The position numbers and the translations under genes are program-made. The notes below the pieces were generated by a model. The model had not been told where the DNA came from and did no database searches. It worked only from the letters and a program-made list of their open reading frames with translations. DNA of 64,000 bases, taken from Toxorhynchites rutilus septentrionalis (Eukaryota > Arthropoda > Insecta > Diptera > Culicidae). The DNA lies in assembly GCF_029784135.1 (NCBI RefSeq), contig NC_073746.1, forward strand, positions 180,855,788 through 180,919,787. Reading direction: 5' to 3'. Below, piece after piece: positions 24,757 to 53,815 of this stretch. Numbering within the stretch: the first letter of the stretch is position 1; the number at the start of each line of letters is the position of its first letter.

Positions 24757-25096
24757 TGTTCAAGATTAGATCTAGCCGTTGGATTCCACAATTGGAAAAA
24801 AAACTATTTGATTTCGCGGTTCAAAGAAACACTGTATTTCGAAACGGGTATAACTAAGTTTAATCAATTCGAGATGTGATCTATCCGATGTTCTATTTGT
24901 GACAGACTTGACTGCCACTGCCACTGGTATTTTATACGATACCAATGGTCAGTGGTGAATATAGAACAATTCTCCTATTGGCAACCAGCGAGCGAGCGAT
25001 CATTGTTGCGAAAGAGAAAGACTGTGTTGTCTTTAGTACAACAGTGTGGATCACCTTAGGGTGACCAACTTGGCATAACTATTTCATTCCTTAACA
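24757..25096 (-). repeat. BEL 3' LTR
   Basis: This LTR is downstream of gag-pol because the element reads on the minus strand. It starts TGTTAAGG and ends GAACA on that strand. It is nearly identical to 31756-32096. Confidence 0.96.
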
Positions 25097-25109
25097 TGCC
25101 GCCCGCCTT
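25097..25109 (-). other. BEL polypurine tract
   Basis: On the minus strand AAGGCGGGCGGCA abuts the 3' LTR. A purine-rich run in this position primes plus-strand DNA synthesis in LTR elements. Confidence 0.8.
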
Positions 25110-25489
25110 GAAATCATAGGATTTCAATATTTCATACTAATCTAACTAATTTTATAATCGAAATGATGATGGAGACTGTATCCATTTGACTTCTTCTGAT
25201 GGTGATTCTGCTTCCTACGTGGACTACGTGTTGTTGAATGGTCGGATGGGGCTGCGACATGCGATGAAGTTTCCTCTTCTGGTTGATGTGGGGATGTGAC
25301 GATGTTTCCTCTTCTTCTGTTTGATAAACTTCAAATACGATGAGACCGATGGTTTCCAATGTTGACATCTACACAACACTGTCTATGGTGGATGAACATT
25401 CCTTGAGCTTTTTGAAATATACAATGAAACAAATACTTAACTGAACGGCGGAGAACTTCCATTAGGAAGTCTCCGCGGTGCCGAAGCAC

Positions 25490-28400
25490 CTACGATGGAA
25501 GTGGTTTACACTCTTCTGCTATTGGTGGTGAGCAGTTGTCTCGAACTGGAAGCACACAAATTTTTGAGATGCCTCTCTTGAGCAGACCATCCTTCGTGCG
25601 AACGGTCACTACACGGATTATCCCGTCTGATCCAGGAATCGTTTCCGCTATTCTTCCCAGACACCACTTCTGAGGAGGAAGATTATCGTCCTTAACCAGA
25701 ACCATGGTGCCAACGATGAGATTGTCGCGCTTCTGGGTCCATTTTGTCCGGTTATGCAAATCGGAAAGGTAGTGTGTTTTCCATTTCCGCCAAATCTGTT
25801 GTACATAACTTTGCGACTTCTGCCACAAGAATAAGCGATTCTCAGGAATTTCCTGCAAATCTGGTGAGGGAATTGACACAAGAGGTCTTCCCGCTATGAA
25901 ATGCCCTGGTGTTAAGGCCTCATAGTCGTTGGGGTCGTTGCTGAGTGGCGTTAAAGGACGAGAGTTCAAAATTGCTGCTAACTGCTGTACCACGGTGTGT
26001 ATCTCGTCATATGTTAAAACTCTGGATCCAATCGTTTTACGAAACTGCGTTTTGAACGATTTTACGGCGGCCTCCCACAGTCCGCCGAAGTTTGGAGATC
26101 TTGGTGGGATAAATTTAAACTGGATCCCTTCAGTTTCACAGTCGCGAGTAACAGTATGTTGAAATTGTTGACTGCACAACTGCAGTCGAAGTAGTTCCAG
26201 CTCTCGATTGGCTCCAACAAAATTGGTGGCGTTGTCGCAGGTGATGACTGACGGTTTTCCACGTATAGAAACGAACCGCTTAAGGGCTCCGAGGAATGCC
26301 TGGGTTGTGAGGTCAGCAACCACCTCCATGTGCACTGCTTTCGTCGTCAGGCAGACGAAGATTGACACGTAGCATTTTATTGATGTGCTACGACGACCAG
26401 GATAGCGTATAAAGAAGGGACCACAAAAATCTACCCCTGTCTTGATAAATGCTGCTGCGGGGCTTACACGATCTGCTGGGAGATCTGCCATCAGTTGCTG
26501 GTGAACCGTAGGTTTGTTACGGAAACATGATGTGCACTCGAAAACGACTTTGCGAGCGAGACTGCGAACATTCGTCGGCCAATAACGCTCCCGAACCGAG
26601 GCGATCAAGAATTGCTGGCCAGCGTGGAAATGCTTACGATGGTAATGTTCCATAATTAGTTTAGTCAATGGATGCTGGTGATGTAAAATCATGGGGTGTT
26701 TCCTGTTTTCGGTCACTGGTGCGTTTGCCAGCCGCCCGCCTACGCGTATTATACCGTCGACCAGAATGGGATTCAAAGATGTGATTTTCGATGATTGATT
26801 AATCGACCGAGCGTGGGAGAGATCTCTCAATTCAGTCGGGAAACTCTCCCGTTGAGCTAAGCGGATTAAAACTTGCAAGGCATCTTCATGCTCTGTATGC
26901 GTCAGCAAACCGATATATCTACTGTTACGTTCCTTCGTTTTTGCGTTCAGGATGAATCGGCGAATCAATGCTATTAATCTGACTAGTTCAGGAAATGAGG
27001 ATCGTAGAAGAATCAACTCGTTCGTAGATTGATTGTGAGTAGCGAGAGTCGTGGTAGACCTTTCCTCCAAGAGAGCTTCATCTCCTTCTGACATGGTGTC
27101 AGTAGATATCGGCCACAAGGATCGATCGAAGCGCAGCCAAAGTGGACCTTCAAACCAAACAGATTGGTATTGTAATTGAGCGGGAATCATTCCGCGTGAG
27201 ATGATGTCGGCGGGATTATTTTCGCCAGCTACATGATTCCAGCATCCATCCTTCGTGATATGCTGTATCTCCGAAACTCGATTGGCTACGAAGATTTGCC
27301 AACGAGACGGAAGCGATGATAACCAGCACTTCACTATCATCGAATCGGTCCAAAAATATGCATGGGACGGGATTTGTATACTTTTGCGAACCTTCTCGTA
27401 TAAATGGCTCAGCAATAAAGCGGATGATAGTTCTAAACGTGGGATGGTTTGTTTTTTCTTTTTTCGATTGATATCTTCTATTGGCGCAACTTTTGATTTG
27501 GCCGTGATGAGACGAACGCTAACTGATCCATCAAGTGAGGTGCAGCGTAAATATAGACACGCACCATACGCTGCTTCTGATGCGTCACAGAAGCCGTGGA
27601 CTTCCACGTGGCTCGCATCATTGGTAAATCCAATCCATCGAGGAACCTTGAGTGACTCGAGGGCAGTTAAATTTCTGCGGTACGTTAACCAGAACTCCTG
27701 ATGACTGACGGATAATGGCTCATCCCAATCACCCTTTAGTTTCCACAGCTCTTGTAAAAATATTTTCGCCTGTACCACTACAGGACCGATGAGACCAAGT
27801 GGGTCAAAAATGCGAGCTATGTCTCCCAAAACAACTCTCTTGGTGATTGTAGGTTCAGAGCTCCAACGAGGTATGGCGTAATTGAATTTATCGACGGATG
27901 GTTCCCAAATAAGCCCTAGGGTTTTCACAGTAGACGATGAATCAATCTCAAAGGTTGAGCGATTATCGCGAAGTTCTGAAGGAACATCATCGATAAGCTC
28001 CAAATTGTTAGAGCTCCACTTTCTCAAACTGAATCCGGCAGAGTTGAACATATCGATGAGTTGGCAGACAAGTTGCTTTCCAGTTTTGATGCTGTCTGTA
28101 CCACTCAGAAGGTCATCTACATAAAAATCCTTCCGAGCCACCTCTGCTGCTACAGGATGTGTGTGTTTTGCATCATTCGCCAACCGTTGAATGCACTTCG
28201 TCGCCAGGTATGGTGCGGAGGCTGTGCCATATGTGACTGTCGTCAGCTGGAAGGTGGTTACCGGTTCGTTGGCAGATTGGCAGAGAATGCGCTGGAGTGG
28301 CTGATCTGCTGAATTCAACTTCACCATGCGATACATTTTCGCAATATCGGCTATGATAGCGAACCTTCGGAATCGAAATCGTAATACGATGGAGAGTAAA

Positions 28401-30958
28401 TCCTCCTGCACAACTGGTCCAACCATGAGTCCGTCGTTTAGCGAGACTCCTGTTGAAGTGCGACAGGAAGCGTCGAATACGACCCGTAGCTTGGTCGTGG
28501 TGCTGTCGGGTTTTATGATAGCATGATGCGGTAAATGGTACAAAGGCTGACTGGAATCTTCTTCAGGCGCTTCTATCATATGTCCCATTGCCAAGTATTC
28601 TTCGATGAATTCGGTATATTGAGTCTTCAAATTATTGTCTGCTGCGAAACGCTTTTCGAGACCATGGAACCTCCTCAATGCGATATCATGTGAATCTCCC
28701 AACTGCCTGATTATGTGCTCTTTCTTGGGAAGAGTAACGATGTATTTTCCATCAATATCACGAACGGTTGTGCAATCGTAAATCTCCTCGCACATGGTTT
28801 CCTCAACAGAAAAGATGCTTGTGCTTTTGCATGATTCTAACTCCCAGAAATTTGTCAGTAATTCGCGTAGTTCGACATTCGAACAAGCATGAGACACCAT
28901 TTTGCGATTATCCACGCTTTTCTCTGACATGCGACCTGAGACAACCCAACCGAAAACGGTCTTCTGGAGTATGGGACCATTTTCCGATAATTTGATTCTG
29001 CCGTTGTCTAAAAGATCATAATAGTGTTCTGCGCCTATTATAATATCGATGGAACCAGGTTTGAAGAACTGAGGGTCCGCCAGAGTGATGTCGTTCGGAA
29101 ATGATAGTTGATTCACATCAATCGATTGGGTCGGTAGCTTCGACGTGAGTTTTGGAAGAACATGCATCTGCAGACTTTCAGTGTATGGCGAAATGCTGGT
29201 GGAACGGGGACCAACAAATGCCTCTACAATTTTAGTAGATCGTACAGTAGAACCTCCTATTCCTGCAACAGACAGGTGACTGACTGCTTCCGTCAGTCTT
29301 AGTTTTTGCGAAAGGTTTGTCGTTATAAAGCAATACTCCGAGCAGGAGTCCAATAATGCCCTCGCTAAGTGAGTATTTCCATGTGGATCTGTCACTCGAA
29401 TCAAGGCAGTAGATAGTAGAACTTGGCGCAAAGGAGTCAGCATGGTTGCTGACAATGCATTAGTGTGCTCGAATGGAATTGGATCTGTGGTGAGTGGCGA
29501 GTGATTGTGTAGAAGCGAATTCGTGTTTGTGATGGGAAATGAATTTGTACTGGGTCCAAGAAGTGGTGTACGTGTTGTCTGGTTCTGGGCAAGTGACTGT
29601 GTTTGTTGATTGTTCGCTGGTGGTGTTCTATTTTGTGATCGTGCGACCAAAGTACTTTGTTGCGACGATGAGACATTTCTATTCGTTGATTCCATATGCA
29701 GTAAGGTGTGATGTTTTTGTCTGCATTGACGACAAACTCCACTTGTACAAGCTCGAACTAGATGTGAGGAAGAGAAACAATTCAAGCATAGCCCATTTCG
29801 TTTCACCTTGTCATACCGCTCAGGTATTCTCAAAGCCAGAAACCTTTGACACTTAAATGCTGAGTGCGGACTTTCTCCACAAAACGGACACCGATTCGCT
29901 GATTGAATGAACGTATGACTAGTGGCTAATTTCGTTTTCTTGATTTCAATTTGCTGATACTTAGCGGGTGTTATGGATTGTAGTACTGAACAATGTGCTC
30001 GAAGGAAAGTCGTCAATTCATCATAACTGGGCACATCCTTTGAGCTGTGATGCGATTCCCAGTGGCGGAGAGTTGTAGGATCGAGTCTAGAGCAAACCAT
30101 ATACACTAAAATTGTACTCCAGTTAGATGGAGCTTCACCAATCTTTTCCAGCATTTGTAAGTTTCGATCGTATTCACTGATCAGATGATTCAATGCTTCG
30201 TAATTCTCCCTCTTTATTGGTTCCTCTGCAAATAGTGCGTCTAGATGAGCCTTGACGATAAGCTTCTTGTTTTCGTACCGATTTTGCAGTACTTCCCACG
30301 CAACTGTATAATTGACCGCTGACATTTCTATGGAATTTACTTCTTGGAGCGCTTCACCTGTGAGGGATGACCGAAGATACGTAAACTTATCCATTTCGGT
30401 AAGCTGTTCGTTCCGATGGATGAGGCTTCTAAACATATCCCGGAACGTTACCCAATCTCGTGTCTTGCCTCCAAAGTTTGGCAGTCGTATTTCTGGAAGT
30501 TTGACACGAGATTGCACACACGATTGATCCGACGGTTGTATCTTCGAAGAGGAGGATGATGACGATTGTAAATCGGACTGTAGACTCTGTAGGATTGATT
30601 TCATCTCACAGCATGAATCTTCAGCCTGTCGAGATAGTTGGGCACTTTCTTCTTCTCGCTTCTCAGCAAGCGATTCCATCCTTGTAACACGATCTTCAGA
30701 ACTCTCTTTGGTGTCGATTGATTCTTTCTCATCCGCTTCTTCCGAAAGTATCTCCAATTTCCTTCTCACGGCGTAGAATTTCTTCATGGCTGACTCCAAC
30801 ATTTCCAGTCTAACTTGGATTTGCAACTGATGCTTCTCTGGTTTAAACTTCCGTATAAACTGCTGCACAGCGTCGAATGTGTTCTGGACCTGTCGTTGCT
30901 GCTTCTTCAAATCTTTCATCTCATTGCTCATTTTCGTACTTTGGAATAATTCACACAA
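25490..30958 (-). CDS. BEL gag-pol polyprotein
   Basis: One 1822-residue frame encodes all functions. The N terminus (1-130) is a charged coiled coil, followed by the DUF1759-type gag region with LPNFGGKTRDWVTFRDMF. Cys/His knuckles lie near 360-420 (CPFCGESPHSAFKC, CLNC, CRQC). An A17-type aspartic protease has ALLDSCSEYCFI near 534, with DSC at the catalytic DSG/DTG position. RT has the catalytic YVDD at about 946-949, and RNase H has GFCDASEAAYGACL. Integrase has an HHCC finger (about 1439-1475), then Asp in GVDFCGPF (about 1508), Asp in CDNATNFVG (about 1573) and Glu in GGLWEAAV (about 1627). A DUF5641-like tail ends the protein. No env is present. The start could be at 30958 or at the next Met nine codons on. 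The copy is uninterrupted. Confidence 0.96.
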   Translation of the reverse strand: MCELFQSTKMSNEMKDLKKQQRQVQNTFDAVQQFIRKFKPEKHQLQIQVRLEMLESAMKKFYAVRRKLEILSEEADEKESIDTKESSEDRVTRMESLAEKREEESAQLSRQAEDSCCEMKSILQSLQSDLQSSSSSSSKIQPSDQSCVQSRVKLPEIRLPNFGGKTRDWVTFRDMFRSLIHRNEQLTEMDKFTYLRSSLTGEALQEVNSIEMSAVNYTVAWEVLQNRYENKKLIVKAHLDALFAEEPIKRENYEALNHLISEYDRNLQMLEKIGEAPSNWSTILVYMVCSRLDPTTLRHWESHHSSKDVPSYDELTTFLRAHCSVLQSITPAKYQQIEIKKTKLATSHTFIQSANRCPFCGESPHSAFKCQRFLALRIPERYDKVKRNGLCLNCFSSSHLVRACTSGVCRQCRQKHHTLLHMESTNRNVSSSQQSTLVARSQNRTPPANNQQTQSLAQNQTTRTPLLGPSTNSFPITNTNSLLHNHSPLTTDPIPFEHTNALSATMLTPLRQVLLSTALIRVTDPHGNTHLARALLDSCSEYCFITTNLSQKLRLTEAVSHLSVAGIGGSTVRSTKIVEAFVGPRSTSISPYTESLQMHVLPKLTSKLPTQSIDVNQLSFPNDITLADPQFFKPGSIDIIIGAEHYYDLLDNGRIKLSENGPILQKTVFGWVVSGRMSEKSVDNRKMVSHACSNVELRELLTNFWELESCKSTSIFSVEETMCEEIYDCTTVRDIDGKYIVTLPKKEHIIRQLGDSHDIALRRFHGLEKRFAADNNLKTQYTEFIEEYLAMGHMIEAPEEDSSQPLYHLPHHAIIKPDSTTTKLRVVFDASCRTSTGVSLNDGLMVGPVVQEDLLSIVLRFRFRRFAIIADIAKMYRMVKLNSADQPLQRILCQSANEPVTTFQLTTVTYGTASAPYLATKCIQRLANDAKHTHPVAAEVARKDFYVDDLLSGTDSIKTGKQLVCQLIDMFNSAGFSLRKWSSNNLELIDDVPSELRDNRSTFEIDSSSTVKTLGLIWEPSVDKFNYAIPRWSSEPTITKRVVLGDIARIFDPLGLIGPVVVQAKIFLQELWKLKGDWDEPLSVSHQEFWLTYRRNLTALESLKVPRWIGFTNDASHVEVHGFCDASEAAYGACLYLRCTSLDGSVSVRLITAKSKVAPIEDINRKKKKQTIPRLELSSALLLSHLYEKVRKSIQIPSHAYFWTDSMIVKCWLSSLPSRWQIFVANRVSEIQHITKDGCWNHVAGENNPADIISRGMIPAQLQYQSVWFEGPLWLRFDRSLWPISTDTMSEGDEALLEERSTTTLATHNQSTNELILLRSSFPELVRLIALIRRFILNAKTKERNSRYIGLLTHTEHEDALQVLIRLAQRESFPTELRDLSHARSINQSSKITSLNPILVDGIIRVGGRLANAPVTENRKHPMILHHQHPLTKLIMEHYHRKHFHAGQQFLIASVRERYWPTNVRSLARKVVFECTSCFRNKPTVHQQLMADLPADRVSPAAAFIKTGVDFCGPFFIRYPGRRSTSIKCYVSIFVCLTTKAVHMEVVADLTTQAFLGALKRFVSIRGKPSVITCDNATNFVGANRELELLRLQLCSQQFQHTVTRDCETEGIQFKFIPPRSPNFGGLWEAAVKSFKTQFRKTIGSRVLTYDEIHTVVQQLAAILNSRPLTPLSNDPNDYEALTPGHFIAGRPLVSIPSPDLQEIPENRLFLWQKSQSYVQQIWRKWKTHYLSDLHNRTKWTQKRDNLIVGTMVLVKDDNLPPQKWCLGRIAETIPGSDGIIRVVTVRTKDGLLKRGISKICVLPVRDNCSPPIAEECKPLPS

Positions 30959-31733
30959 TATTCGAAAGATAATCGGAATAAATGATAATTTTATGAAGTA
31001 TGATTCAGTAGTTATTTTTTACGTTTCTCGAGAATTGGAATATCAACGATATTGAAAATATGTAGAATCGATTCGAGCGGACTTCAGCGAGGGGAACCGA
31101 CCAAGCGAACAAACAAGCCGAAAAATGCCAGCAGAAACCAAGACCAACCGTCAATATACGTGAAATCAAGGACCAACAGTTTCCCAAAAAACTATTCGCA
31201 TGCAATGGAAATTTCTTTGAAGGTTTTATTTAAACTTTATTTCATTTCACTCGAGAGAACGTATATGCCACATGCAAGACGACACCACAGACCAACCATG
31301 CACATGCAAAACTACTTCCCTCTGCCAATTCTCCAAAACTGCGTGTCCAGGTCCTCAGGATCTTCTGCTGCTTCGTATCCGGTGATTCGCTGCGACTGTC
31401 GAACCCTGCTCACTCTTTCCTGCTATCGTTGCACTATTCGATAAACTTTTATCGGGATGAAAACCACTATTCTTCACTGTTGGCTTCTTTAGTTCACTAG
31501 TGTTTCCTATTGATCACTATTGTTCTACCACAATTATCCTTTTCAGGATATCACAATGGTGATGAAAGTCACTATTGTTCTTGCACAATGGCCAGAATTG
31601 TGCCAATATGTGCCACTATTGTGAACAACACAATACTATTGTGCACTGAACAATACGATTGTACTCGAAAGTTTTTGTTCACTACTTTTTTCCACTAAAC
31701 TAATCCAACGGCTAATCTGTCCACCGGTCGAAT

Positions 31734-31751
31734 ATCCGGTTCGAAGGACCA
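31734..31751 (-). other. BEL primer-binding site
   Basis: Four bases after the 5' LTR the minus strand reads TGGTCCTTCGAACCGGAT, the complement of a tRNA 3' end (CCA plus T-arm). I cannot name the tRNA with certainty. Confidence 0.75.
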
Positions 31752-31755
31752 AAAA

Positions 31756-32096
31756 TGTTCAAGATTAGATCTAGCCGTTGGATTCCACAATTGGAAAAAA
31801 AAACTATTTGATTTCGCGGTTCAAAGAAACACTGTATTTCGAAACGGGTATAACTAAGTTTAATCAATTCGAGATGTGATCTATCCGATGTTCTATTTGT
31901 GACTGACTTGACTGCCACTGCCACTGGTATTTTATACGATACCAATGGTCAGTGGTGAATATAGAACAATTCTCCTATTGGCAACCAGCGAGCGAGCGAT
32001 CATTGTTGCGAAAGAGAAAGACTGTGTTGTCTTTAGTACAACAGTGTGGATCACCTTAGGGTGACCAACTTGGCATAACTATTTCATTCCTTAACA
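31756..32096 (-). repeat. BEL 5' LTR
   Basis: This is the promoter-bearing LTR of the minus-strand element. It pairs with 24757-25096, and ACAGT follows at 32097-32101. Confidence 0.96.
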
Positions 32097-43659: not shown

Positions 43660-44509
43660 CATCCCATTGAGAGATTAGATCTTCTTCACAATTTTTCGCC
43701 AATAGTCCCGATCCATGGCTGCAGTTCTCCAACTCCCGGCTGCACCGATTCTTGCCAAGTCCTGCTCCACCTGGTCCAACCACCTCGCTCGCTGGGCTCC
43801 TCTCCTTCTTGTTCCTACCGGATTCGATGCGAACACCATCTTTGCAGGGCTGCTGTCCGGCAATCTTGCAACATGCCCTGCCCATCGCACTCGTCCAGCC
43901 TTGGCGACTTTCTGAATGCTGGGTTCGCCGTAGAGTTGCCCCAGTTCGTGGTTCATTCTCCTTCTCCATACTCCGTTTTCCTGTACACCACCGTATATTG
44001 TTCTGAGCACTCGGCGTTCGAAAACTCCAAGCGCTTGTGAGTCCTCTTCAAGCATCGTCCATGCTTCGTGCCCATAGAGAACAACCGGTCGAATTAGGGA
44101 TTTGTACATGGTACACTTCGTACGGGGTCGGAGTTTGTTGGACCTCAAGGATTTGCGGAGCCCATAGTAGGCACGACTTCCATTGACAATGCGTCTTCGA
44201 ATTTCACGGCTGTTGTTGTTGTCAGTTGTTATCAACGAGCCAAGGTAGACAAATTCCTCCATCACCTCGAGCTCGTCGCCGTTGATCACAACACTACTAC
44301 GAAAAAGAACTCTGTTGCGATCAGTCCCTCCAGCTAGCATGTATTTAGTCTTAGACGCATTGATCCCAAGCCCAATCAGCCCTGCTTCGTGTTTCAGTCG
44401 GGTATACAAGTCGGCTACCGTCGCATGTGTTCTTCCGATTATGTCCACGTCGTCGGCGAAGCAGATAAACTGACTAGACTTGTTGAAAATCGTGCCCCGC
44501 ATGTTGAAG
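43660..44509 (-). pseudogene. RTE-like RT, C-terminal part
   Basis: The minus-strand frame (to 44529) starts in the RT palm with ICFADDVDIIGRT (catalytic FADD). It continues through INASKTKYMLAGG, EFVYLGSLITTDN and RRRIVNGSRAYYGL, and ends with the C-terminal domain (PVVLYGHEAWTM, VRWAGHVARLP, RRRGAQRARWLDQVEQDL). These match RTE-like non-LTR retrotransposons common in insects. The 5' part of the same gene is at 53317-53815, beyond the gypsy element. The two join at the gypsy target duplication CCCG (44510-44513). The 3' end is near 43650. Confidence 0.88.
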
Positions 44510-44513
44510 CCCG

Positions 44514-45286
44514 TGTAGTATGATTTCAAATCCCATTTCCAAATCTCATTTCAAATCCCATATTTCATAGGCCATATATCATTCCATAACCCATTTTTTA
44601 AATCCATCCCCAAAACCCATCCTCATAAGCAGTTGATTGTTTCTTAATAAATGACTCATGCGTAGTCACTTCGATTTACAATTCCCATGAAACATTCCTC
44701 AAGCACAACTGCATTATTTAGTTAATTGCTTTTCCCCACATTCATTCATAGAAACAAGCCAACGTGCGCTGACGATATGAATGTACTCTTACATCATATC
44801 GCGCGCAGCTAAAGGCAATAAACCAGTAGCCAAAACAAACCTAGTTCTATTCTGATGAAATACGCGACCATATACAAAGTCGTCGTGACACTTTACGATT
44901 TCCCATGAAATCGATATGCGCGCTTACGAGTGCAGTAAGCATTATTATTTCTTGACCCCATTCACATCGAACACTGCATTCGATTGATTGGCTATTCCCC
45001 TTTGAAATCAACTTGGCTCCTCCCAGTGAAACTCTACACAAATTGTTGTAACTACTAGCTTAGGACTTTAGTAACCAGTGTTAAGGGAGTTCTAGAGACA
45101 CACGCCACGCGATAGGTCGTGTTGAGTTTTCTTCAGATAATTTAATATAAAGAGTATCGTGTCTTTGGTACACAAAAAACAAAATGAGAAATAAAGTGTA
45201 TAGAAGTTATTTGATGTTGACCGTGTTTGTGAACTAAACACAGTTGATGACAACCGTGAGTTGAGAATGGGTAGAAAAACATTTGA
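44514..45286 (+). repeat. gypsy 5' LTR
   Basis: It starts TGTAGTATGATTTCAAATCC and ends ACATTTGA just before the primer-binding site. Its first 60 bp contain short repeats of CAAATCCCAT type. The ORF at 44847-45041 recurs in the other LTR and is not a gene. Confidence 0.96.
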
Positions 45287-45300
45287 TGGCGACCGTGTTT
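45287..45300 (+). other. gypsy primer-binding site
   Basis: TGGCGACCGTGTTT directly follows the LTR. The first 11 bases match the tRNA-Arg-complementary site known from mdg1/412-type elements. Confidence 0.85.
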
Positions 45301-46393
45301 TAAAAAGAATTCATGCAATCTTCGGATGCGAGTGCGATATGATAGTGCTCGACACGTAAAACGAGCCACAGGAAAAGCGATCCGATGTAACAGCTCTAGA
45401 TGTGCGACGGTATTTGAATTCATCGGAAAATCGGCGGAATTCCAGGAGATCCAGTGCAATATTATTGAGGATGAAAGTGAGCAAGAGTACTGCGGTGCAA
45501 GAGTGAAATGAAGTTCGCTGATAAGAATTAGTAATCGAAATTCTTGGTGTGGCTGAGTGAAACAAAGCAAGAAAAAGTGTGTGCAAAACCAACCAGCCGT
45601 ATCACAACAATGTACTAAACTGTGATAGTAAATGTGAACCCAAAAATTGGAGTGAACAAAGCATGGACATTACTGATTATCACTTCAGAACTTTTTTATC
45701 GCAGTGCGAAACGGTGCCAGAGAAAAAAAAAACAGCTAACTGAGTAGTGAGAGAAACAGTGCCAGAAGAAAGACTAACTGTATCGCAGTGCGAAAGGGCC
45801 ATGTAAAAAAAAAAAAAAAAAGTCAGATAACGGACTGTAACAACAATTACCGAAGTGTCCAGTGAACAACGACCTGTGCAATGAACATGGAAAAAAGCTG
45901 CCTAAGAGTTGGCTCGCAAGTGCTCCTTGGAAGGCGAGACCACTGCCAGCAGTAAGGAACTGGCAGGCGGGTAGACAGAAAACCAAAAGAGGCGCAGAAG
46001 AAAATTCCCGGCGAAGGCCATCAACTAGCAGCAGCAGCGTGAGCAGCAAACAGATGAGCAGCAAATCAACCTAGACGGTGGTCCAAAGGAAGTTTTCAAG
46101 TAAATGATTAAATCTGTTTTTTTTATCGATTACGTCTGTAGATCATATACGATGAAAGTTCACTTCAGAAATTTTTTTTTAATCAAAATGATATGATGAA
46201 ACAAGAGTGAGTTATTTGAAAAAAAAAAGAAGACTAAATAAATGAAATGCAAGTAGATATTATACAATTAAATAATTTTTATCATTCAAATATCATCAAA
46301 GAATTAATGAAATAAATTAATGAAATAAATTAATGAATCACGAATGTAACACGAATAATAATGAAACTTTAAGGAATTCGAATATGAACTAAC
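45301..46393 (+). other. gypsy leader region
   Basis: This 1.1-kb untranslated leader is A-rich and includes A-runs near 45725 and 45806. I see no ORF with family resemblance in it. Its length is unusual and leaves room for packaging or translation signals. Confidence 0.6.
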
Positions 46394-46630
46394 ATGGGAT
46401 TGTTTAGCTCTAAAAAGGTAACGAATACTGGAGATCCACAGGTCACAGTTCTAAATTACCTTGAGCAGCATTCTCGATTCCATGAAACTAATGAAGTTAT
46501 ATTGTGTGTGATTTTAATCATCACACTATTGCTTGCATTAAACAAAGTTTACAAACTGTATAAAAATTGTACGCGGACAGAAGCTTTGAGAGCCGCTCGA
46601 ACTATCGCTGGTCTACAGGAGATAGCATAA
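46394..46630 (+). CDS. gypsy accessory ORF A, membrane microprotein
   Basis: This 78-residue ORF upstream of gag begins MGLFSSKK, which fits the N-myristoylation pattern (Gly2, Ser at position 6, then Lys). One hydrophobic segment at about residues 36-55 (VILCVILIITLLLALNKVYK) would span a membrane, and the tail is basic (KLYKNCTRTEALRAAR). A lipid-anchored, membrane-spanning small protein could target element products to membranes, but no function is shown here. The ATG at 46394 is the only good start (AACATGG). The ORF keeps clear coding character, ends in TAA, and is followed by another small ORF 111 bp on. I recall small ORFs before gag in some mdg1-lineage elements but cannot verify homology. 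Confidence 0.7.
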   Translation: MGLFSSKKVTNTGDPQVTVLNYLEQHSRFHETNEVILCVILIITLLLALNKVYKLYKNCTRTEALRAARTIAGLQEIA

Positions 46631-46741
46631 AAACACATATGCGTATATACATTTTTTTTTTCTTTCTCTTCCTCTCTCCTCCTATTTAAAAATAAATTTA
46701 ATCTTTTTCTCATCAATAATTAAATACAAATAACATACAAA

Positions 46742-46954
46742 ATGATTTCGGAAGTCGAGCTCAAAGAATTTCTAGAATTCCTAGATGAAGTAGGAAAAGG
46801 TAAAGGAACGGGACCATTTGCTCCATTACAAACGAGCGAAGTATCTTCTTGGGAAGAATTGTTAACTCGAATACGTGAATTGCCTGGAGATGATCCAATT
46901 ACCTGGATAGATTATGAAACTGGCAAGAGATTACACCAACAAAATGAGAAGTAG
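46742..46954 (+). CDS. gypsy accessory ORF B, acidic small protein
   Basis: This 70-residue ORF lies between ORF A and gag and ends 32 bp before the gag ATG. It is acidic, with an N-terminal amphipathic helix (SEVELKEFLEFLDEVGKG), a central WEELLTRIRELPGDDP segment and a conserved-looking WIDYETGKRL end. No family is recognised. The ATG context (CAAAATG) is good. Its position just before gag suggests that the three frames are read from one RNA by reinitiation or leaky scanning, or from spliced RNAs. Confidence 0.65.
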   Translation: MISEVELKEFLEFLDEVGKGKGTGPFAPLQTSEVSSWEELLTRIRELPGDDPITWIDYETGKRLHQQNEK

Positions 46955-46986
46955 GGTGTACAAATTAAACGAACAAGTTCTCTTCA

Positions 46987-48507
46987 ATGGATCGACTTAG
47001 AGAAATCGAATTCCATTTAAAGAAAGAATTTCAAAACCTAACCAAAAATAAACTTCGACCTAGGACCTTACAAAATATTGAAATAAAAAGACAGCAAATA
47101 CAAGAAAACTTGGAGGAATATAGAATAGTTTTAAAAACATTCGAATTCAGAATCAATGCATCTAAGTGGAATGAAGAAGTAGAAACCTACGGAGCATTGA
47201 AGGTAATATACCAAAAGTGTATAAAATTACTTGACAATTCTCAAGTTATACAACGAGAATATGACAGTGAGCCGGAAACAAGCGAAAAACCTCCTGGCTT
47301 ACTCCAATATTTGAAACCAGACACTGAAGACTCATTGTTAAGAGTGCGCAGTGAAATAAATCTGATCAAGAGAAAATTTAAGCTCAAAATACTAGCAAAA
47401 ATTGTAGTTTGGTATCTAAGAGCAAACAACAAAAAGATAATGGCGTTAAGTATTAAGACAGCTGCTGAACTAGCAACACTTATACCCACCTATGATGGAA
47501 GTCCAGGTGGAGTAAAATCCTTTATTGATGCAGTTAATCTGACTAGTACAATAGTACCAGATGTAAATAAAGCTGCAGCGATTCAAGTAATATTGACAAA
47601 GTTGAGTGGAAAAGCAAGAAACTTATTTTCCACAACTCCCATCGAATACGACGAGATCACAACCAAGATAAAGTCAAATTGTGAAGAAAAAGGAAATTCA
47701 GATTTAGCATTAGCTAATTTGAAAAATTTAAAATTGAAAAACGCCAATGAAATCGAGAATTTTATTAAACAACTCGATGTTTTAGCAGACAAATTGAAAG
47801 ACACTTATATTAGAGAACAAATTCCTGACAATGTAGCGAGGAAAATGTCTCAAAAGGCAGCAATCCAAACACTTATCGACGAGACATCAAATAAAGAAAC
47901 GAAAATGATGTTAAGAATTGGAAAATTTGATAATCTCCAAGAAGCCATCAATGTCATGGTGGAGAACGAGAAGACGGGAAATAGAGACACAAATGCAGTA
48001 GTACTGCATTCGATAAAAAACAGGCAACCAAACAATTCTGGACAGAATAATAACAAGTACTTAAACCACAATATTAACCATAGAAATTCAATGATGACCG
48101 ATCGATTCAACCAGAGAAATTATTCTCAATGCGGATATCAGAATAGATACCCAAATAACAACAGAAATTTCAATCGGAATTGGCAACAATATCCCATTAA
48201 CAGAAATTTCAACCAAGGGTCACAACAATATCCTACTCAAAGAAATTTCTACCAGAATAACAATAGAAATCCTAACGGAACTTACAATAGAAATAACATT
48301 CCAGCTAGGATGTACGCTGTAAATCATCAAAATATTCCTCGACGGAACGCACATACTAACAATAATCAATTTTATCCACAAATTGAATCGGATAATAATT
48401 GCCAAGCTTTGGTACCATTCAATAACAACAATACAGTACCTAACCCCAACAATCAAACGACGCAATCAGGAAATTACAATTCTGATTATTTTTTAGTCAA
48501 CCAGTAA
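46987..48507 (+). CDS. gypsy gag
   Basis: The 506-residue capsid protein starts at the ATG in TTCAATGG. Residues 1-60 are helical and charged (LREIEFHLKKEFQNLTKNKL). The central part (about 155-330) is capsid-like (AELATLIPTYDGSPGGVKSF, LANLKNLKLKNANEIENFIK). The C-terminal 170 residues are extremely rich in Asn, Gln, Arg and Tyr (NRNFNQGSQQYP and similar repeats) and contain no CCHC knuckle. This low-complexity tail probably replaces the knuckle in RNA binding. The end of the frame carries a slippery heptamer at 48489-48495, used to enter pol. Confidence 0.92.
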   Translation: MDRLREIEFHLKKEFQNLTKNKLRPRTLQNIEIKRQQIQENLEEYRIVLKTFEFRINASKWNEEVETYGALKVIYQKCIKLLDNSQVIQREYDSEPETSEKPPGLLQYLKPDTEDSLLRVRSEINLIKRKFKLKILAKIVVWYLRANNKKIMALSIKTAAELATLIPTYDGSPGGVKSFIDAVNLTSTIVPDVNKAAAIQVILTKLSGKARNLFSTTPIEYDEITTKIKSNCEEKGNSDLALANLKNLKLKNANEIENFIKQLDVLADKLKDTYIREQIPDNVARKMSQKAAIQTLIDETSNKETKMMLRIGKFDNLQEAINVMVENEKTGNRDTNAVVLHSIKNRQPNNSGQNNNKYLNHNINHRNSMMTDRFNQRNYSQCGYQNRYPNNNRNFNRNWQQYPINRNFNQGSQQYPTQRNFYQNNNRNPNGTYNRNNIPARMYAVNHQNIPRRNAHTNNNQFYPQIESDNNCQALVPFNNNNTVPNPNNQTTQSGNYNSDYFLVNQ

Positions 48508-51500
48508 CAATTGAACGCAGATGTCGACTAACTGGACAATTGTTACGGTCAGACTCACCGATTTTGACAATAAATTTAAATGCATCAAACTTTATTCAGG
48601 TCAAAGTGCACATGACTGGAAATAAAGTATGCAACCTAATCATTGACACCGGTGCAGATATTTCGTTGTTTAAAGCACGAAATATTCTCCCAACTCAACC
48701 TGTAAATAGTAACAATAAAATTAAATTAACCGGAATTACGGAAAACAGTGTAGAAACTTTAGGTATAACAAATACAGCTATGTGTTTTAATAATACTTTA
48801 ACTTTAAATCATGATTTTCATCTAGTTACCGCAGACCTACCAATACAAGCAGACGGTATACTAGGAAGGGATTTTTTAATAAATTATAAGTGTTTAATAG
48901 ACTATGAATATTGGCTACTTACCTTTAATATAGCTAATGTACAGATTTCAATACCAATAGAAGATAATTTAAAAGAAGGCTTCATGTTACCAAGCCGTAG
49001 TGAAGTAGTTAGAAGGATACCATATTTAAATATTATAGAAGATATGGTAGTTCATTCGGAAGAAATTTATCCAGGAGTTTTCTGTGGAAATACTATAATT
49101 TCACCAGCAAAACCCTATGTAAAATTTGTAAATACCACAAACAAACCTTTGTATATACACTATTCAGAATTTAAACCTACATTAAGTATTTTAAATAATT
49201 ATACAATACTTAATAGTAATAACAAAAATAATAAGAGATTCGATGAAATTTTTAAAATCATAGATACAGAAAAAATCCCCATATATGCTAAAGACAAGTT
49301 TAAAAATTTAATTGCTAGATATCAAGATATATTTTGTCTCCCAGAGGAGGATGTGACTAGAAACAATTTCTATTCACAGAATATTGTTCTTAACGACAAA
49401 GTACCTGTATATATTCCTAATTACAAGACGATTCATGCTCAACATAATGAAATAAATAGACAAGTGAATAAAATGTTAGAGAGTAATATAATCGAACCTT
49501 CGGTTTCACCATATAATTCACCAATTCTTCTTGTACCAAAAAAATCTTGTGACAATGACAAGAAATGGCGTTTAGTTGTCGATTTCAGACAACTGAACAA
49601 GAAAATTTTAGCAGACAAATTTCCTCTACCAAGAATTGATGATATTTTAGACCAACTTGGAAGAGCAAAATATTTTTCAACTTTAGATCTCATGTCAGGT
49701 TTTCATCAAATACCTTTGGACAATGAGTCTAGAAAATTTACAGCATTTTCAACACAAAATGGACATTATCAGTTTACGAGATTACCGTTTGGATTAAATA
49801 TAAGCCCAAACAGTTTTCAACGCATGATGACCATTGCAATGGCTGGTTTAACTCCAGAAATATCCTTTATTTATATTGACGATATTATCGTCACGGGATG
49901 TTCAGTTAATCATCATATTTCAAATTTGACTCAAGTTTTTGAACGATTAAGATTTTATAATTTGAAACTTAATGCTCAGAAATGCAAATTTTTTAGCACT
50001 GAAGTTACCTTTCTAGGTCATAAAATAACAGAGCATGGCATGTTACCAGATGATTCTAAATTTTCAGTAATTCAAAATTACCCAATCCCAAAAAATGCAG
50101 ATGAAGTCAGAAGATTCGTTGCATTTTGTAATTATTATCGAAAATTTGTACCAAATTTTGCATTGATTGCAAATCCACTTAACCAACTTCTAAAAAAGGA
50201 TTCAAAATTCAGATGGACAGATAATTGCCAAAACGCATTCAACATATTACGAAATTCATTAATGTCACCTAGATTACTCCAATATCCAGATTTTACGAAG
50301 CAATTTATATTAACAACAGATGCTTCAGACATTGGCTGTGGAGCTGTATTGTCACAACAAACACTAAACGGAAATTTACCAATAGCATTTGCAAGTAAAA
50401 CTTTTACACCTGGCGAGAAAAATAAACCAGTTATTCTGAAGGAATTAACAGCCATACATTGGGCTATTAATTATTTCAAACCTTACCTATACGGTAGAAA
50501 ATTTTTAGTACAAACAGACCATAGACCATTAGTTTATCTGTTCGGAATGAAAAATCCAACATCAAAATTAACCAGAATGCGTCTTGATTTAGAAGAATAT
50601 GATTTTTCAATTGAATATATATCAGGAAAATCGAATGTAGGAGCAGATGCTTTGTCGAGAATAATAACAACTTCTGACGAACTAAAAAATTTAAACATAT
50701 TAGGAGTAAGCACGAGAGCAATGACTCGTAACATAAAAAATGATGACAGAATAGTAACATCAACAGATAAAGAGATTTCTGTACCAAGAGAACTTGATCA
50801 CTTCTCTACGTACATGACAAATAATCCATCAGAAACCAACAAATTAATTAAACTTGAAACAAAAGTTGACAAAAATGAAATAAAATTTATATTAAAGAAA
50901 AACAATAAAATTATTGCGCAAGTGCATCAAAGAATTTTAAATGGGAGTCAGACATTAGAATCTGCACTTCTAAAAGTGGAAGAATCAATGATTAAAATGA
51001 ACCAAAATAAATTAGCGCTCTCAACTAAAGATGAAATTTTTAAAATGCTATCAATTGAAAACTTTAAAACGTTAGCAAATGCACGAGTGTATTTAATAGA
51101 AATTATTATTTACAATCCACCAACATTTTTAACAAAAAGGGAAAATATTCAAAAAGTATTATACAATTATCATAATACCCCTACTGGAGGACATATCGGA
51201 CAACATAGATTATACCTTCAAATAAGAGAGGTGTACAATTGGAGCAATATGAAAAGATCGATTGCAGAATTCATTAAGGCCTGTGAATTATGCAAACGAA
51301 ACAAAATCATAAAGCATACCAAGGAAAAACAAGTAGTAACTACAACTTCATCTTATCCATTCGAAATTATTTCCATAGACACAGTTGGACCTTTACCTAG
51401 AAGTCACAACAACAATAGATATGCAGTTAGTGTCCAATGCGACTTGACAAAATATGTCGTATTGATTCCTGTGCCCACAAAAGAAGCTAATGTAATTGCT

Positions 51501-52172
51501 AAAGCATTAGTAGACAATTTTATTTTGACTTATGGAACATTTCTAACTTTACGTTCTGATCAAGGAACTGAGTATAATAACGAAGTCTTTGAGCAGATCT
51601 GTAAAATGCTTAAAATCGAACAAAAATTCAGTACAGCTTATCACCCTCAGACGATTGGATCGTTAGAGAGAAATCACAGGTGTTTAAATGAATACCTGAG
51701 ATCTTTCGTTAATGAACATCAAACTGATTGGGATGAATGGTTAAAATTCTATGCTTTCAACTATAATACAACCCCACATTCAGACCATGGTTTTACACCA
51801 CATGAACTCGTTTTTGGAAATAAAGCTAAACTACCACAGGAATTATTCAAAAATGGAACAGAACCAATATATAATTTTGAACAATATAGCAAAGAATTGA
51901 AATTTAAAATACAACGTTCTAACGAAATTGCAAGAGATAAGTTAATAAATCAGAAAGTTCAAAGAGCAACCAATACTGAAAACAATTGTAACCCAATTCA
52001 TTTAAATATAAACGATAAAGTTTATTTGAAAATAGAAAACAGAAGGAAATTAGATCCTTTCTACGATGGACCATACATAGTGCAGGAACTATTAGATCCT
52101 AATTGTAAAATTTTAAACCCTAGAACAAACCATGAAAAAGTTGTACACAAAAATAGATTAATAAAAACATAA
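48486..52172 (+). CDS. gypsy pol (protease, RT, RNase H, integrase)
   Basis: The pol frame opens at 48486, after TGA at 48483-48485, and overlaps the end of gag by 22 nt in the -1 frame. It has no ATG near its start, so it is reached by frameshifting. Protease has IIDTGADISLF near residue 53. RT has LVVDFRQLN, LPFGLNISPNSFQR and the catalytic YIDD near 463. RNase H has TTDASDIGCGAVLS near 611 and the TDHRPL block. Integrase has an HHCC finger (GGHIGQH ... CELCKRNK), then Asp in SIDTVGPL, Asp in RSDQGTEY and Glu in SLERNHRCLNEYLR. GPYIVQELLDP follows near the C terminus. All catalytic residues are present and no stop interrupts about 1228 codons. Confidence 0.96.
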   Translation, partial: LFFSQPVTIERRCRLTGQLLRSDSPILTINLNASNFIQVKVHMTGNKVCNLIIDTGADISLFKARNILPTQPVNSNNKIKLTGITENSVETLGITNTAMCFNNTLTLNHDFHLVTADLPIQADGILGRDFLINYKCLIDYEYWLLTFNIANVQISIPIEDNLKEGFMLPSRSEVVRRIPYLNIIEDMVVHSEEIYPGVFCGNTIISPAKPYVKFVNTTNKPLYIHYSEFKPTLSILNNYTILNSNNKNNKRFDEIFKIIDTEKIPIYAKDKFKNLIARYQDIFCLPEEDVTRNNFYSQNIVLNDKVPVYIPNYKTIHAQHNEINRQVNKMLESNIIEPSVSPYNSPILLVPKKSCDNDKKWRLVVDFRQLNKKILADKFPLPRIDDILDQLGRAKYFSTLDLMSGFHQIPLDNESRKFTAFSTQNGHYQFTRLPFGLNISPNSFQRMMTIAMAGLTPEISFIYIDDIIVTGCSVNHHISNLTQVFERLRFYNLKLNAQKCKFFSTEVTFLGHKITEHGMLPDDSKFSVIQNYPIPKNADEVRRFVAFCNYYRKFVPNFALIANPLNQLLKKDSKFRWTDNCQNAFNILRNSLMSPRLLQYPDFTKQFILTTDASDIGCGAVLSQQTLNGNLPIAFASKTFTPGEKNKPVILKELTAIHWAINYFKPYLYGRKFLVQTDHRPLVYLFGMKNPTSKLTRMRLDLEEYDFSIEYISGKSNVGADALSRIITTSDELKNLNILGVSTRAMTRNIKNDDRIVTSTDKEISVPRELDHFSTYMTNNPSETNKLIKLETKVDKNEIKFILKKNNKIIAQVHQRILNGSQTLESALLKVEESMIKMNQNKLALSTKDEIFKMLSIENFKTLANARVYLIEIIIYNPPTFLTKRENIQKVLYNYHNTPTGGHIGQHRLYLQIREVYNWSNMKRSIAEFIKACELCKRNKIIKHTKEKQVVTTTSSYPFEIISIDTVGPLPRSHNNNRYAVSVQCDLTKYVVLIPVPTKEANVIAKALVDNFILTYGTFLTLRSDQGTEYNNEVFEQICKMLKIEQKFSTAYHPQTIGSLERNHRCLNEYLRSFVNEHQTDWDEWLKFYAFNYNTTPHSDHGFTPHELVFGNKAKLPQELFKNGTEPIYNFEQYSKELKFKIQRSNEIARDKLINQKVQRATNTENNCNPIHLNINDKVYLKIENRRKLDPFYDGPYIVQELLDPNCKILNPRTNHEKVVHKNRLIKT
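48489..48546 (+). promoter_or_regulatory. -1 ribosomal frameshift signal at gag-pol
   Basis: In the gag frame the heptamer T_TTT_TTA (48489-48495) is a canonical -1 slippery site. After an 8-nt spacer (48496-48503), GTAACAATTG (48504-48513) can pair perfectly with CAATTGTTAC (48537-48546), giving a 10-bp stem with a 23-nt loop. The stem contains the gag UAA stop. Slippage at the heptamer enters the pol frame exactly where that frame is open. Sequence and spacing fit the known mechanism; efficiency is not known. Confidence 0.85.
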
Positions 52173-52527
52173 ACAAGAAATATGACAAACAATTTGTATT
52201 CCATTCCAAACGAATTTTTTTAACACAAAAAAAAAATTTTTTTTCCCTATAATTTCAAAAAAATTTCAATTACAAGAGTATAGTAGTTAGTTAAACTTTT
52301 AATTATCCTTAATATCTTGGTAACTGTTTAAAATTACATTATTTATTAAGTATCTTACAAATCCAATATATATATTTAAAAATATTCACATGAACTTTCG
52401 AATAAAATTTATATCAATGAAATAAAAACTATATGTATCAAACTTTGGAACATTGAGAGAAGCCAAGGAACAATTATTTGAAAACCAGAATACTAAGAAT
52501 GATTTCATTTTATTACATCATTCTCCC

Positions 52528-52539
52528 GAAGAGGGATGG
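52528..52539 (+). other. gypsy polypurine tract
   Basis: GAAGAGGGATGG lies directly before the 3' LTR, in the position of the plus-strand primer. Confidence 0.85.
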
Positions 52540-53312
52540 TGTAGTATGATTTCAAATCCCATTTCCAAATCTCATTTCAAATCCCATATTTCATAGGCCA
52601 TATATCATTCCATAACCCATTTTTTAAATCCATCCCCAAAACCCATCCTCATAAGCAGTTGATTGTTTCTTAATAAATGACTCATGCGTAGTCACTTCGA
52701 TTTACAATTCCCATGAAACATTCCTCAAGCACAACTGCATTATTTAGTTAATTGCTTTTCCCCACATTCATTCATAGAAACAAGCCAACGTGCGCTGACG
52801 ATATGAATGTACTCTTACATCATATCGCGCGCAGCTAAAGGCAATAAACCAGTAGCCAAAACAAACCTAGTTCTATTCTGATGAAATACGCGACCATATA
52901 CAAAGTCGTCGTGACACTTTACGATTTCCCATGAAATCGATATGCGCGCTTACGAGTGCAGTAAGCATTATTATTTCTTGACCCCATTCACATCGAACAC
53001 TGCATTCGATTGATTGGCTATTCCCCTTTGAAATCAACTTGGCTCCTCCCAGTGAAACTCTACACAAATTGTTGTAACTACTAGCTTAGGACTTTAGTAA
53101 CCAGTGTTAAGGGAGTTCTAGAGACACACGCCACGCGATAGGTCGTGTTGAGTTTTCTTCAGATAATTTAATATAAAGAGTATCGTGTCTTTGGTACACA
53201 AAAAACAAAATGAGAAATAAAGTGTATAGAAGTTATTTGATGTTGACCGTGTTTGTGAACTAAACACAGTTGATGACAACCGTGAGTTGAGAATGGGTAG
53301 AAAAACATTTGA
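52540..53312 (+). repeat. gypsy 3' LTR
   Basis: It has the same length as the 5' LTR, and no difference was noticed in the parts compared. The target duplication CCCG follows at 53313-53316. Confidence 0.96.
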
Positions 53313-53316
53313 CCCG

Positions 53317-53815
53317 CTCTCCGCATAACACCTTCCAGCGCCACGTTGAAGAGCAGACAGGAGATTCCATCGCCTTGTCGAAGTCCCCTGTGAGTCTCAA
53401 ATGATTCCGACAGCTCACCTGAGATCCGCACACTGCACCGCACACCGTTCATCGTTGCCTGAATCAGTCTTGTCAGCTTTCGGGGAAAGCCGTGTTCGTC
53501 CATGATCCTCCATAGCTGTCGTCGGTCGATTGTATCATATGCGGCCTTGAAGTCGACGAAGATGTGGTGTGTAGGGACCTGATACTGATGAATCCGGCCT
53601 GATAACTTCCCACAAATCTACTTACTATTGGCGATAGGCGGCGGAAGAGGATCTGAGACAAAATTTTGAAAAATGTTCCCACAATCCAACTTGTCGCCTT
53701 TTTTATAGATGGGGCAGATTACCCCGTCCTTCCACTCCTGTTCTAGCTGTTCTGTGTCCCAGATCCTGACTATCAACCGGTGCATACACTCTACAAGTTT
53801 TCTTGAACCGTATGT
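53317..53815 (-). pseudogene. RTE-like RT, N-terminal part, 5' truncated
   Basis: Read on the minus strand, pieces in two or three frames give ECMHRLIVRIWDTEQLEQEW and GVICPIYKKGDKLDCGN. After a damaged stretch come VDFKAAYDTIDRRQLWRIM, FPRKLTRLIQATMNGVRCSV and GLRQGDGISCLLFNVALEGV. These are the fingers and palm of the RT whose remainder lies at 43660-44509. The start of the palm is damaged and the endonuclease is missing, so the element was 5' truncated or decayed before gypsy inserted. Confidence 0.85.

What the first reader, a model, noticed from the sequence alone, without database searches (positions are those of the whole stretch)
48489..48546. Complete -1 frameshift cassette at a gypsy gag-pol junction
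The gag frame contains T_TTT_TTA, the strongest class of -1 slippery heptamer. An 8-nt spacer follows, then a perfect 10-bp stem-loop (48504-48513 with 48537-48546) that embeds the gag stop. The pol frame has no ATG nearby and is open exactly from the slip site. Three independent features agree (heptamer phase, spacer, stem), which is unlikely by chance. Many gypsy frameshift sites lack such a clear structure.
Basis: partly seen in the sequence, partly recalled or inferred. Interest (0 to 1): 0.75.

Follow-up and report, generated by a model that had tools for sequence, protein, structure and literature searches.

The report
Retrotransposon gag-pol frameshift signal
A young mobile element in what is probably a mosquito genome carries a textbook signal, a slippery run of bases followed by an RNA hairpin, that should let some ribosomes slip back one base and make its enzymes; it is a well-preserved example of a mechanism already known.

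Summary
T_TTT_TTA (48489-48495) lies in the gag frame, followed by 8 nt and a perfect 10-bp stem (48504-48513/48537-48546) holding the gag stop. Pol is open in the -1 frame from 48486.

The element (44514-53312; LTRs 100% identical, target duplication CCCG) has the features of the MDG1/412 clade, not of the env-bearing gypsy/errantivirus clade: no env, an integrase GPY motif, and an sORF2-like ORF upstream of gag.

TTTTTTA is in 107 of 117 junction-holding stretches (119 fetched), covering 12 families or subfamilies (A-L). The 10 others are a second lineage (M-O) without TTTTTTA; pol is in -1 in 8 of those 10.

The stem is kept in subfamilies A-F (pol about 81-100% identical), with 16 of 171 synonymous codon-pair differences against 1561 of 4846 downstream. 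It is absent from G-L; K has an unrelated stem at the same 8-nt spacing. No pair changed on both sides within the ten pairs.

Best reading: -1 ribosomal frameshifting with a fixed slip site and a lineage-specific hairpin. Frameshifting was not measured. New member of a known kind. A conserved small ORF before gag was noticed in passing.

The parts
48489..48495 (+). slippery heptamer T TTT TTA in the gag frame
   Evidence: letters; phase; present in 107 of 107 junction-holding stretches of families A-L
48496..48503 (+). 8-nt spacer GTCAACCA
   Evidence: less conserved than heptamer and arms (0.82 against 1.0 and 0.93/1.0)
48504..48513 (+). 5' arm of the stem, GTAACAATTG; holds the gag stop at 48505-48507
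   Evidence: identical in the A-E representatives, 2 changes in F
48514..48536 (+). 23-nt loop; predicted inner 3-bp helix 48518-48520/48532-48534, longer in subfamily F
48537..48546 (+). 3' arm of the stem, CAATTGTTAC
   Evidence: identical in the A-F representatives; codons 16-19, 0 of 55 synonymous differences
46987..48507 (+). gag, 506 aa from ATG, no zinc knuckle seen by eye; ends DYFLVNQ*
   Evidence: (no Pfam hit)
48486..52172 (+). pol in the -1 frame: protease, reverse transcriptase, RNase H, integrase (RVP, RVT_1, RT_RNaseH, H2C2, rve), GPY motif near the C-terminus
44514..45286 (+). 5' LTR (773 bp)
   Evidence: 774-nt repeat 44513-45286 = 52539-53312, 100%; boundary by the CCCG duplication
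52540..53312 (+). 3' LTR (773 bp), identical to the 5' LTR
44510..44513 (+). target-site duplication CCCG (other copy 53313-53316)
45287..45297 (+). putative primer binding site TGGCGACCGTG (tRNA-Arg type is recalled, not tested)
46394..46630 (+). sORF2-like small ORF, 78 aa, MGxxxS myristoylation motif, one hydrophobic (transmembrane-like) stretch, then basic residues
   Evidence: features as described in PMC11952523; no transmembrane predictor was run
46742..46954 (+). further small ORF, 70 aa, between sORF2 and gag; relatives in subfamilies B, C, E and family I

Best explanation
This is the gag-pol -1 programmed ribosomal frameshift signal of a young MDG1/412-type LTR retrotransposon. Most ribosomes read ...DYFLVNQ and stop, giving Gag. 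A minority, with tRNA-Phe and tRNA-Leu on TTT TTA, slip back one base onto TTT TTT. They continue with Ser-Gln-Pro-Val... into protease, reverse transcriptase and integrase, giving Gag-Pol. The hairpin 8 nt downstream would sit at the ribosome's mRNA entry and raise the slip rate. The slip site is the fixed part across families A-L. This particular hairpin belongs to one lineage (subfamilies A-F), while other families either use other structures or do without one. Shown: letters, frames, conservation, synonymous constraint. Inferred: that slipping happens, its rate, and that the hairpin stimulates it. The confidence below is for slipping at this site; for the hairpin as stimulator I would say about 0.65.
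For: Frames and letters. The element is recent and multicopy: LTRs 100% identical, and 36 of 40 scored genome matches to the 121-nt junction are 100% identical, the window's own among them (40 of 114 candidates scored). Its gag and pol ORFs are open, so pol has to be reached across the gag stop.

Conservation: of 99 junction stretches fetched from the first family search, 97 hold the junction and 97 of 97 have TTTTTTA. In a second set 10 of 20 have it: 8 of family J, one K, one L. In one search the -1 frame is open to the end of the piece in 20 of 21 pieces of families A-J; the exception (L068) has an indel in the loop.

In a gag alignment of 16 rows, 13 have a tail, and 12 of 13 carry F-L or F-F at the slip position in an otherwise poorly conserved region. 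Column identity is 0.85 for the F and 0.50 for the L/F, against a mean of 0.28 over the 118 scored columns before them.

Stem: pairing is kept in the A-F rows (9 or 10 of 10; in L049 a loop indel shifts the register but both arms are intact). Synonymous differences over the hairpin codons are 16 of 171, against 1561 of 4846 in the codons after it, and 0 of 55 in the 3' arm. Of 401 windows of 15 codons, 3 are that low, this one included. Mean nucleotide identity over the six representatives: heptamer 1.0, arms 0.93 and 1.0, spacer 0.82, loop 0.80, following 32 nt 0.80.

Known precedent: 28 of 51 animal LTR elements have pol in -1, many with classical heptamers (PMC5009743 passages).
Against: No compensatory double change in the ten pairs: across the six subfamily representatives 8 pairs never vary, one goes A-U to G-U in F, and one becomes C-A (unpaired) in F. 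The 5' arm codons are less protected (8 of 46 synonymous differences) than the 3' arm. Other stretches are as conserved in nucleotides: the best 20-nt windows lie near 48600, not in the hairpin. The stem is missing from families G-J and L, and another one stands in K, so slipping may not need it. It is A+U-rich, and its z-score fades with longer windows. Recombination between subfamilies (see noticed items) could lower divergence locally. Lineage M-O does without this heptamer. No frameshifting was measured.
Confidence: 0.9

Rival explanations
1. The slip site alone does the work; the hairpin is incidental or is kept for another reason (RNA packaging, a protein linker, local recombination).
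For: Families G and I keep TTTTTTA without a notable fold in the 50 nt that start 5 nt after it (z +0.6 and -0.8; I reaches -2.4 over 110 nt); no compensatory changes; the 3' arm's pol codons are also conserved as amino acids.
Against: Synonymous change is suppressed over the hairpin; arms are more conserved than spacer, loop and the next 32 bases; subfamily F keeps 9 of 10 pairs; K has its own hairpin with the main helix also 8 nt from the slip site (z -2.7).
Confidence: 0.3
2. RNA polymerase or reverse transcriptase slippage on the T run makes a fraction of transcripts with gag and pol in one frame, instead of ribosomal slipping.
For: The T run does change length in the genome: 3 of 97 stretches have 7 or 8 T (L047 with 7; L040 and L128 with 8), and the copy holding L047 has a single 1727-aa open frame.
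Against: The phase X XXY YYZ and the UUA codon are kept in A-L, which polymerase slippage would not need; a downstream hairpin has no obvious role in it; the copies with longer runs are rare.
Confidence: 0.06
3. Pol is made separately, by reinitiation or internal initiation at the ATG 48612 just before protease.
For: An ATG (...VHM...) lies 105 nt past the gag stop, and a Met at or near this place is seen in most of the family representatives and starts many database pol proteins.
Against: The -1 frame is kept open from the slip site to that ATG, and the slip site is kept over families where the gag stop position varies.
Confidence: 0.04

Closest known systems
HIV-1 gag-pol frameshift element
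   Same: Same heptamer U UUU UUA; [quoted passage not shown]
   Different: The codon after the heptamer is GTC here (GGG in HIV-1; GG- also follows in families H-K); the stem is A+U-rich with a 23-nt loop; the gag stop is inside the stem; no Rfam family matched 48300-48800.
-1 gag-pol sites of Drosophila LTR retrotransposons surveyed in 2003 (as reported in PMC5009743)
   Same: Pol in -1 relative to gag with a classical tandem heptamer (28 of 51 animal elements in -1, many with such sites; passages).
   Different: The survey itself is not held under the DOI I recalled; whether it gives this heptamer or a hairpin for MDG1 members could not be read.
MDG1-group elements 412, Mdg1, Stalker2, Blood, Tabor of D. 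melanogaster
   Same: No env; gag and pol; sORF2 with myristoylation motif and transmembrane stretch upstream of gag (PMC11952523).
   Different: A further small ORF lies between sORF2 and gag here; no sequence comparison with the named fly elements was possible.
SRV-1 type gag-pro sites (G GGA AAC; recalled)
   Same: Family N of the same genome has GGGAAAC in its gag/pol overlap, in the gag phase in the copies read.
   Different: That lineage (M-O) lacks T TTT TTA in the 10 stretches seen.

Membership tests
-1 programmed ribosomal frameshift signal | heptamer X XXY YYZ in zero-frame phase within the overlap | tested here: met
-1 programmed ribosomal frameshift signal | downstream structure at 5-9 nt | tested here: met
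   8 nt; fold z -2.5 to -2.6 over 50-72 nt, -0.7 over 125 nt
-1 programmed ribosomal frameshift signal | -1 ORF open from the site, with conserved domains | tested here: met
-1 programmed ribosomal frameshift signal | heptamer conserved in relatives | tested here: met
   107 of 117 junction-holding stretches, the 10 others being families M-O
-1 programmed ribosomal frameshift signal | compensatory base-pair changes in the stem (supportive, not defining) | tested here: not met
   none in the ten pairs over A-F
-1 programmed ribosomal frameshift signal | measured fusion product | not testable with these tools
   no expression data
MDG1/412 clade of Metaviridae | no env between pol and the 3' LTR | tested here: met
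   pol ends 52172, LTR starts 52540
MDG1/412 clade of Metaviridae | GPY motif in integrase (412 and blastopia subgroups yes, errantiviruses no; PMC5408687 passages) | tested here: met
   ...YDGPYIV... near the end of pol
MDG1/412 clade of Metaviridae | sORF2 upstream of gag | tested here: met
   46394-46630; judged by features, not by sequence match to a fly sORF2
MDG1/412 clade of Metaviridae | 4-bp target duplication and tRNA-Arg primer site, as the Culex Mdg1 element (PMC3286476 passages) | tested here: inconclusive
   4-bp duplication met; the tRNA match is recalled
MDG1/412 clade of Metaviridae | pol tree with named MDG1 members | not tested
gypsy clade / Errantivirus | third ORF (env) | tested here: not met
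   some errantivirus-derived elements have lost it (PMC5408687 passages), so this alone does not exclude them; the GPY motif also speaks against

The most novel reading that the evidence does not exclude
In MDG1 elements the slip site is fixed while the stimulator is replaceable. One lineage (A-F) has a hairpin that swallows the gag stop, another (K) has an unrelated one at the same 8-nt spacing, and others have none or a more distant fold. Because the stop sits in pairs 2-4 of the stem, a ribosome terminating Gag would hold the hairpin open, so Gag output could feed back on Gag-Pol output.
Probability: 0.15. Interest if true: 0.5.

Novelty: new member of a known kind. Interest (0 to 1): 0.3.

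Why it matters
It gives the likely way in which this abundant, recently active element makes its enzymes. It also offers a natural series in one genome (A-F with the hairpin, G-J and L without this stem, K with another, M-O with other slip sites) in which slip site and stimulator can be told apart. For frameshifting in general it is a clean example, not a new principle.

Tried and rejected
Relatives in public collections: the search for related loci on viral contigs with a pol piece, the gag alignment (24) and the pol alignment (30), and on genome contigs with the pol piece (16) and the pol alignment (31), confirmed none. Phage records had no match (32). Three plasmid records gave weak matches (25-33% identity) that look like host or contaminant DNA (33, 35). 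The protein search for pol (25; the best 120 of 1065 listed) gave N-termini that nearly all start at a Met, so the overlap could not be read from the pol side (27). Rfam: no hit at 48300-48800 (81).

Pseudoknot: an alternative pairing of the spacer with the loop (CCAGT/ACTGG) was seen by eye; its geometry (no first loop) makes it unlikely; one search gave no pseudoknot prediction. A pair outside the ten (48500/48549) is A-U in A and B, G-C in E, but A against A in C and D (read by eye from the rows), so it was not counted as covariation.

A miscount found on checking: one search counted L127 as lacking TTTTTTA because its search range ended too early; one search shows that L127 has the heptamer and the stem, so 97 (not 96) of 97 stretches have it.

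Gag rows left out: P0016-P0018 (weak hits, not aligned) and P0139-P0143 (fragments or distant). P0004, P0009 and P0014 are in the alignment but have no tail.

Synonymous test: 6 representatives (the window and 5 of the 20 stretches); the other 15 were sister copies or more distant families. Of the 129 places, 30 were not fetched (the window's own among them); all 30 are among the 36 100%-identical matches.
Full report
What is there. Gag (46987-48507) ends GAT TAT TTT TTA GTC AAC CAG TAA. The heptamer T TTT TTA at 48489-48495 is in the phase needed for a -1 slip. Eight bases follow, then arms 48504-48513 and 48537-48546 that are perfectly complementary around a 23-base loop, with the gag stop inside the 5' arm. 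The pol frame is closed by TGA at 48483-48485 and open from 48486 to 52172. Its first ATG is at 48612.

Chance. Of 1230 XXXYYYZ heptamers on both strands of the window, this is the only one with a perfect stem of at least 10 bp 5-9 nt downstream. Fold z-scores are about -2.5 for 50-72 nt but -0.7 for 125 nt. The stem has three G-C pairs and the bare hairpin is predicted at -10.2 kcal/mol.

What carries it. The LTRs are 100% identical over 773 bp, flanked by CCCG on both sides. The element seems to sit inside a non-LTR element on the minus strand (ORFs 43675-44550 and 53168-53617; reading by eye). Pol has protease, RT, RNase H and integrase domains. There is no room for env. A 78-aa ORF (46394-46630) has the MGxxxS motif, a hydrophobic stretch and following basic residues, as described for sORF2 of MDG1-group elements (PMC11952523: abstract, passages, sections 7 and 10). 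Integrase has a GPY motif, which the 412 and blastopia subgroups have and errantiviruses lack (PMC5408687 passages). A Culex Mdg1 element has an Arg primer site and 4-bp duplications (PMC3286476 passages). So I take it as an MDG1/412-clade element. No tree with named members was made.

Copies in the same genome. The window lies in G000, 902,557,243 bases in 514 contigs. Two gag relatives named in Wyeomyia and Topomyia suggest a mosquito. The pol N-terminus has 129 scored matches of 787 candidates, which I grouped by identity and junction sequence. I fetched 99 of these junctions. Two hold other DNA (L035, L126); 97 of the other 97 contain TTTTTTA, three of them in a run of 7 or 8 T. The 30 not fetched are among the 36 matches (of 40 scored) that are 100% identical over the 121-nt junction, so subfamily A itself says little about constraint.

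Subfamilies. Representatives of B to F have pol pieces 95.6, 89.2, 88.1, 81.8 and 81.1% identical to the window in amino acids. Gag ends Y/H-F-L-x-x-Q-stop in each. The arms are identical in the A-E representatives. F has two changes in the 5' arm: one A-U to G-U, one U-A to an unpaired C-A. Its predicted inner helix is longer. Two single copies have one arm change each (L128, L130). Identity over the six representatives is 1.0 in the heptamer, 0.93 and 1.0 in the arms, 0.82 in the spacer, 0.80 in the loop and 0.80 in the next 32 nt; some 20-nt windows further into pol (near 48600) are as conserved or more. Synonymous differences are 16 of 171 over the hairpin, 8 of 46 in the 5' arm codons, 0 of 55 in the 3' arm codons, and 1561 of 4846 after the hairpin. 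Three of 401 overlapping windows are as low, this one included. This supports a function of the RNA there, but no pair changed on both sides, so pairing itself is not proven by covariation.

More distant families. G, H, I and J (56-57, 54, 52-53 and 49% identical to the window's pol N-terminus) and K and L (50 and 49% to J's) keep T TTT TTA, but not this stem. In the 50 nt that start 5 nt after the heptamer G and I have no notable fold (z +0.6 and -0.8; I has -2.4 over 110 nt). H has z -2.9 over 70 nt but -0.8 over 50; J has -2.4 over 50 and -3.0 over 110 but -0.4 over 70. K has its own hairpin whose main helix starts 8 nt after the heptamer (z -2.7), and L has z -1.9 over 50 nt. A further lineage found with P0056 (M, N, O) has no TTTTTTA in 10 of 10 stretches. 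Pol is in -1 with a long overlap in 8 of the 10; two copies of N (L155, L157) stand otherwise; L155 has an indel in the overlap, L157 was not looked into. N has GGGAAAC, in phase in the copies read (L155, L156); M and O have no canonical heptamer that I could point to.

Protein evidence. In the gag alignment 13 of 16 rows have a tail; 12 of 13 have F-L or F-F at the slip place. The F column scores 0.85 identity and the L/F column 0.50, against a mean of 0.28 over the 118 scored columns before them.

Mechanism. The simplest reading is -1 ribosomal frameshifting at TTT TTA with the hairpin as stimulator, as at HIV-1, where the slip site is the same and an 8-base spacer is described if only the upper stem is counted (PMC4373837 abstract and passages). 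Slipping itself was not measured. The hairpin's role I hold at about 0.65, the slip site's at about 0.9. In A-F the stop lies in the stem, so a terminating ribosome would open it. A feedback from this is an idea, not a result.

Known or new. A review reports 28 of 51 animal LTR elements with pol in -1 and many classical heptamers, most in D. melanogaster (PMC5009743 passages). The survey it cites was not found under the DOI I recalled. My searches (listings and starts of abstracts, for only 20 of 265 and for 20 of 24) showed no paper on this site in mosquito MDG1 elements, in a library that lacks most subscription journals. I file it as a new member of a known kind.

Against my reading: no compensatory changes, no such stem in the next families, a weak A+U-rich stem, signs of recombination between subfamilies that could mimic local conservation, a lineage without this heptamer (M-O), and two copies in which gag and pol are in one frame (L047; L167).

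Noticed in passing
window 46742-46954: A 70-aa ORF between sORF2 and gag (motif ...EFLEFLDEVGKGKGTGPFAP...RELPGDDPITW...). Of 16 stretches read, 7 hold it full-length (A, B1, C1, C2, E2, I1, I2) and E1 a shortened one; the other 8 show none, some because they hold other DNA or may end before it. Identity between subfamilies is 43-86%, and A against E2 has pN 0.069 and pS 0.523 (dN/dS about 0.08), so it looks like a third accessory protein under purifying selection. No Pfam hit above cut-off; the sections I read of the MDG1 paper describe only sORF1 and sORF2. Whether it is a moved sORF1 could not be tested.
   Followed up: partly
window 46394-46630; L137-L148: sORF2-like proteins seem to swap between lineages: the one F copy read has an sORF2 closer to H's (32%) than to A's (19%), although F's pol is 81% identical to A's.
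   Followed up: partly
window 46394-50000: The element looks like a mosaic: sORF2 and gag N-terminus match subfamily E (91 and 98% against 78 and 72% for B), while pol matches B (95.6% against 81.8% for E), which points to recombination between them.
   Followed up: partly
L047 (G000:C1:12662872) and L167 (G000:C1:81067300): Two copies with gag and pol in one frame: one with an extra T in the slippery run (open frame 1727 aa), one of family J with a rearranged junction (1633 aa). Sequencing error is possible.
   Followed up: partly
L154-L163: Lineage M-O in the same genome has no T TTT TTA (10 of 10 stretches) although pol is in -1 in 8 of 10; N has GGGAAAC, M and O a non-canonical G GAA AAC at what looks like the corresponding place.
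   Followed up: partly
window 24757-32096 (minus strand): A second LTR element, apparently BEL-type by eye, with 99.4% identical repeats and one 1842-aa ORF.
   Followed up: no
window 43675-44550 and 53168-53617 (minus strand): The element appears to be inserted in a non-LTR retrotransposon, splitting its reverse transcriptase (by eye).
   Followed up: no
L001 (NZ_CP087956.1): A 5.3-kb record listed as a Wolbachia plasmid encodes protease, RT and RNase H 33% identical to this pol; it looks like a retroelement of the moth host. Two Bacillus licheniformis plasmid records also have weak RT matches.
   Followed up: partly
window 10464-11349: A 443-bp direct tandem duplication, 99.8% identical.
   Followed up: no
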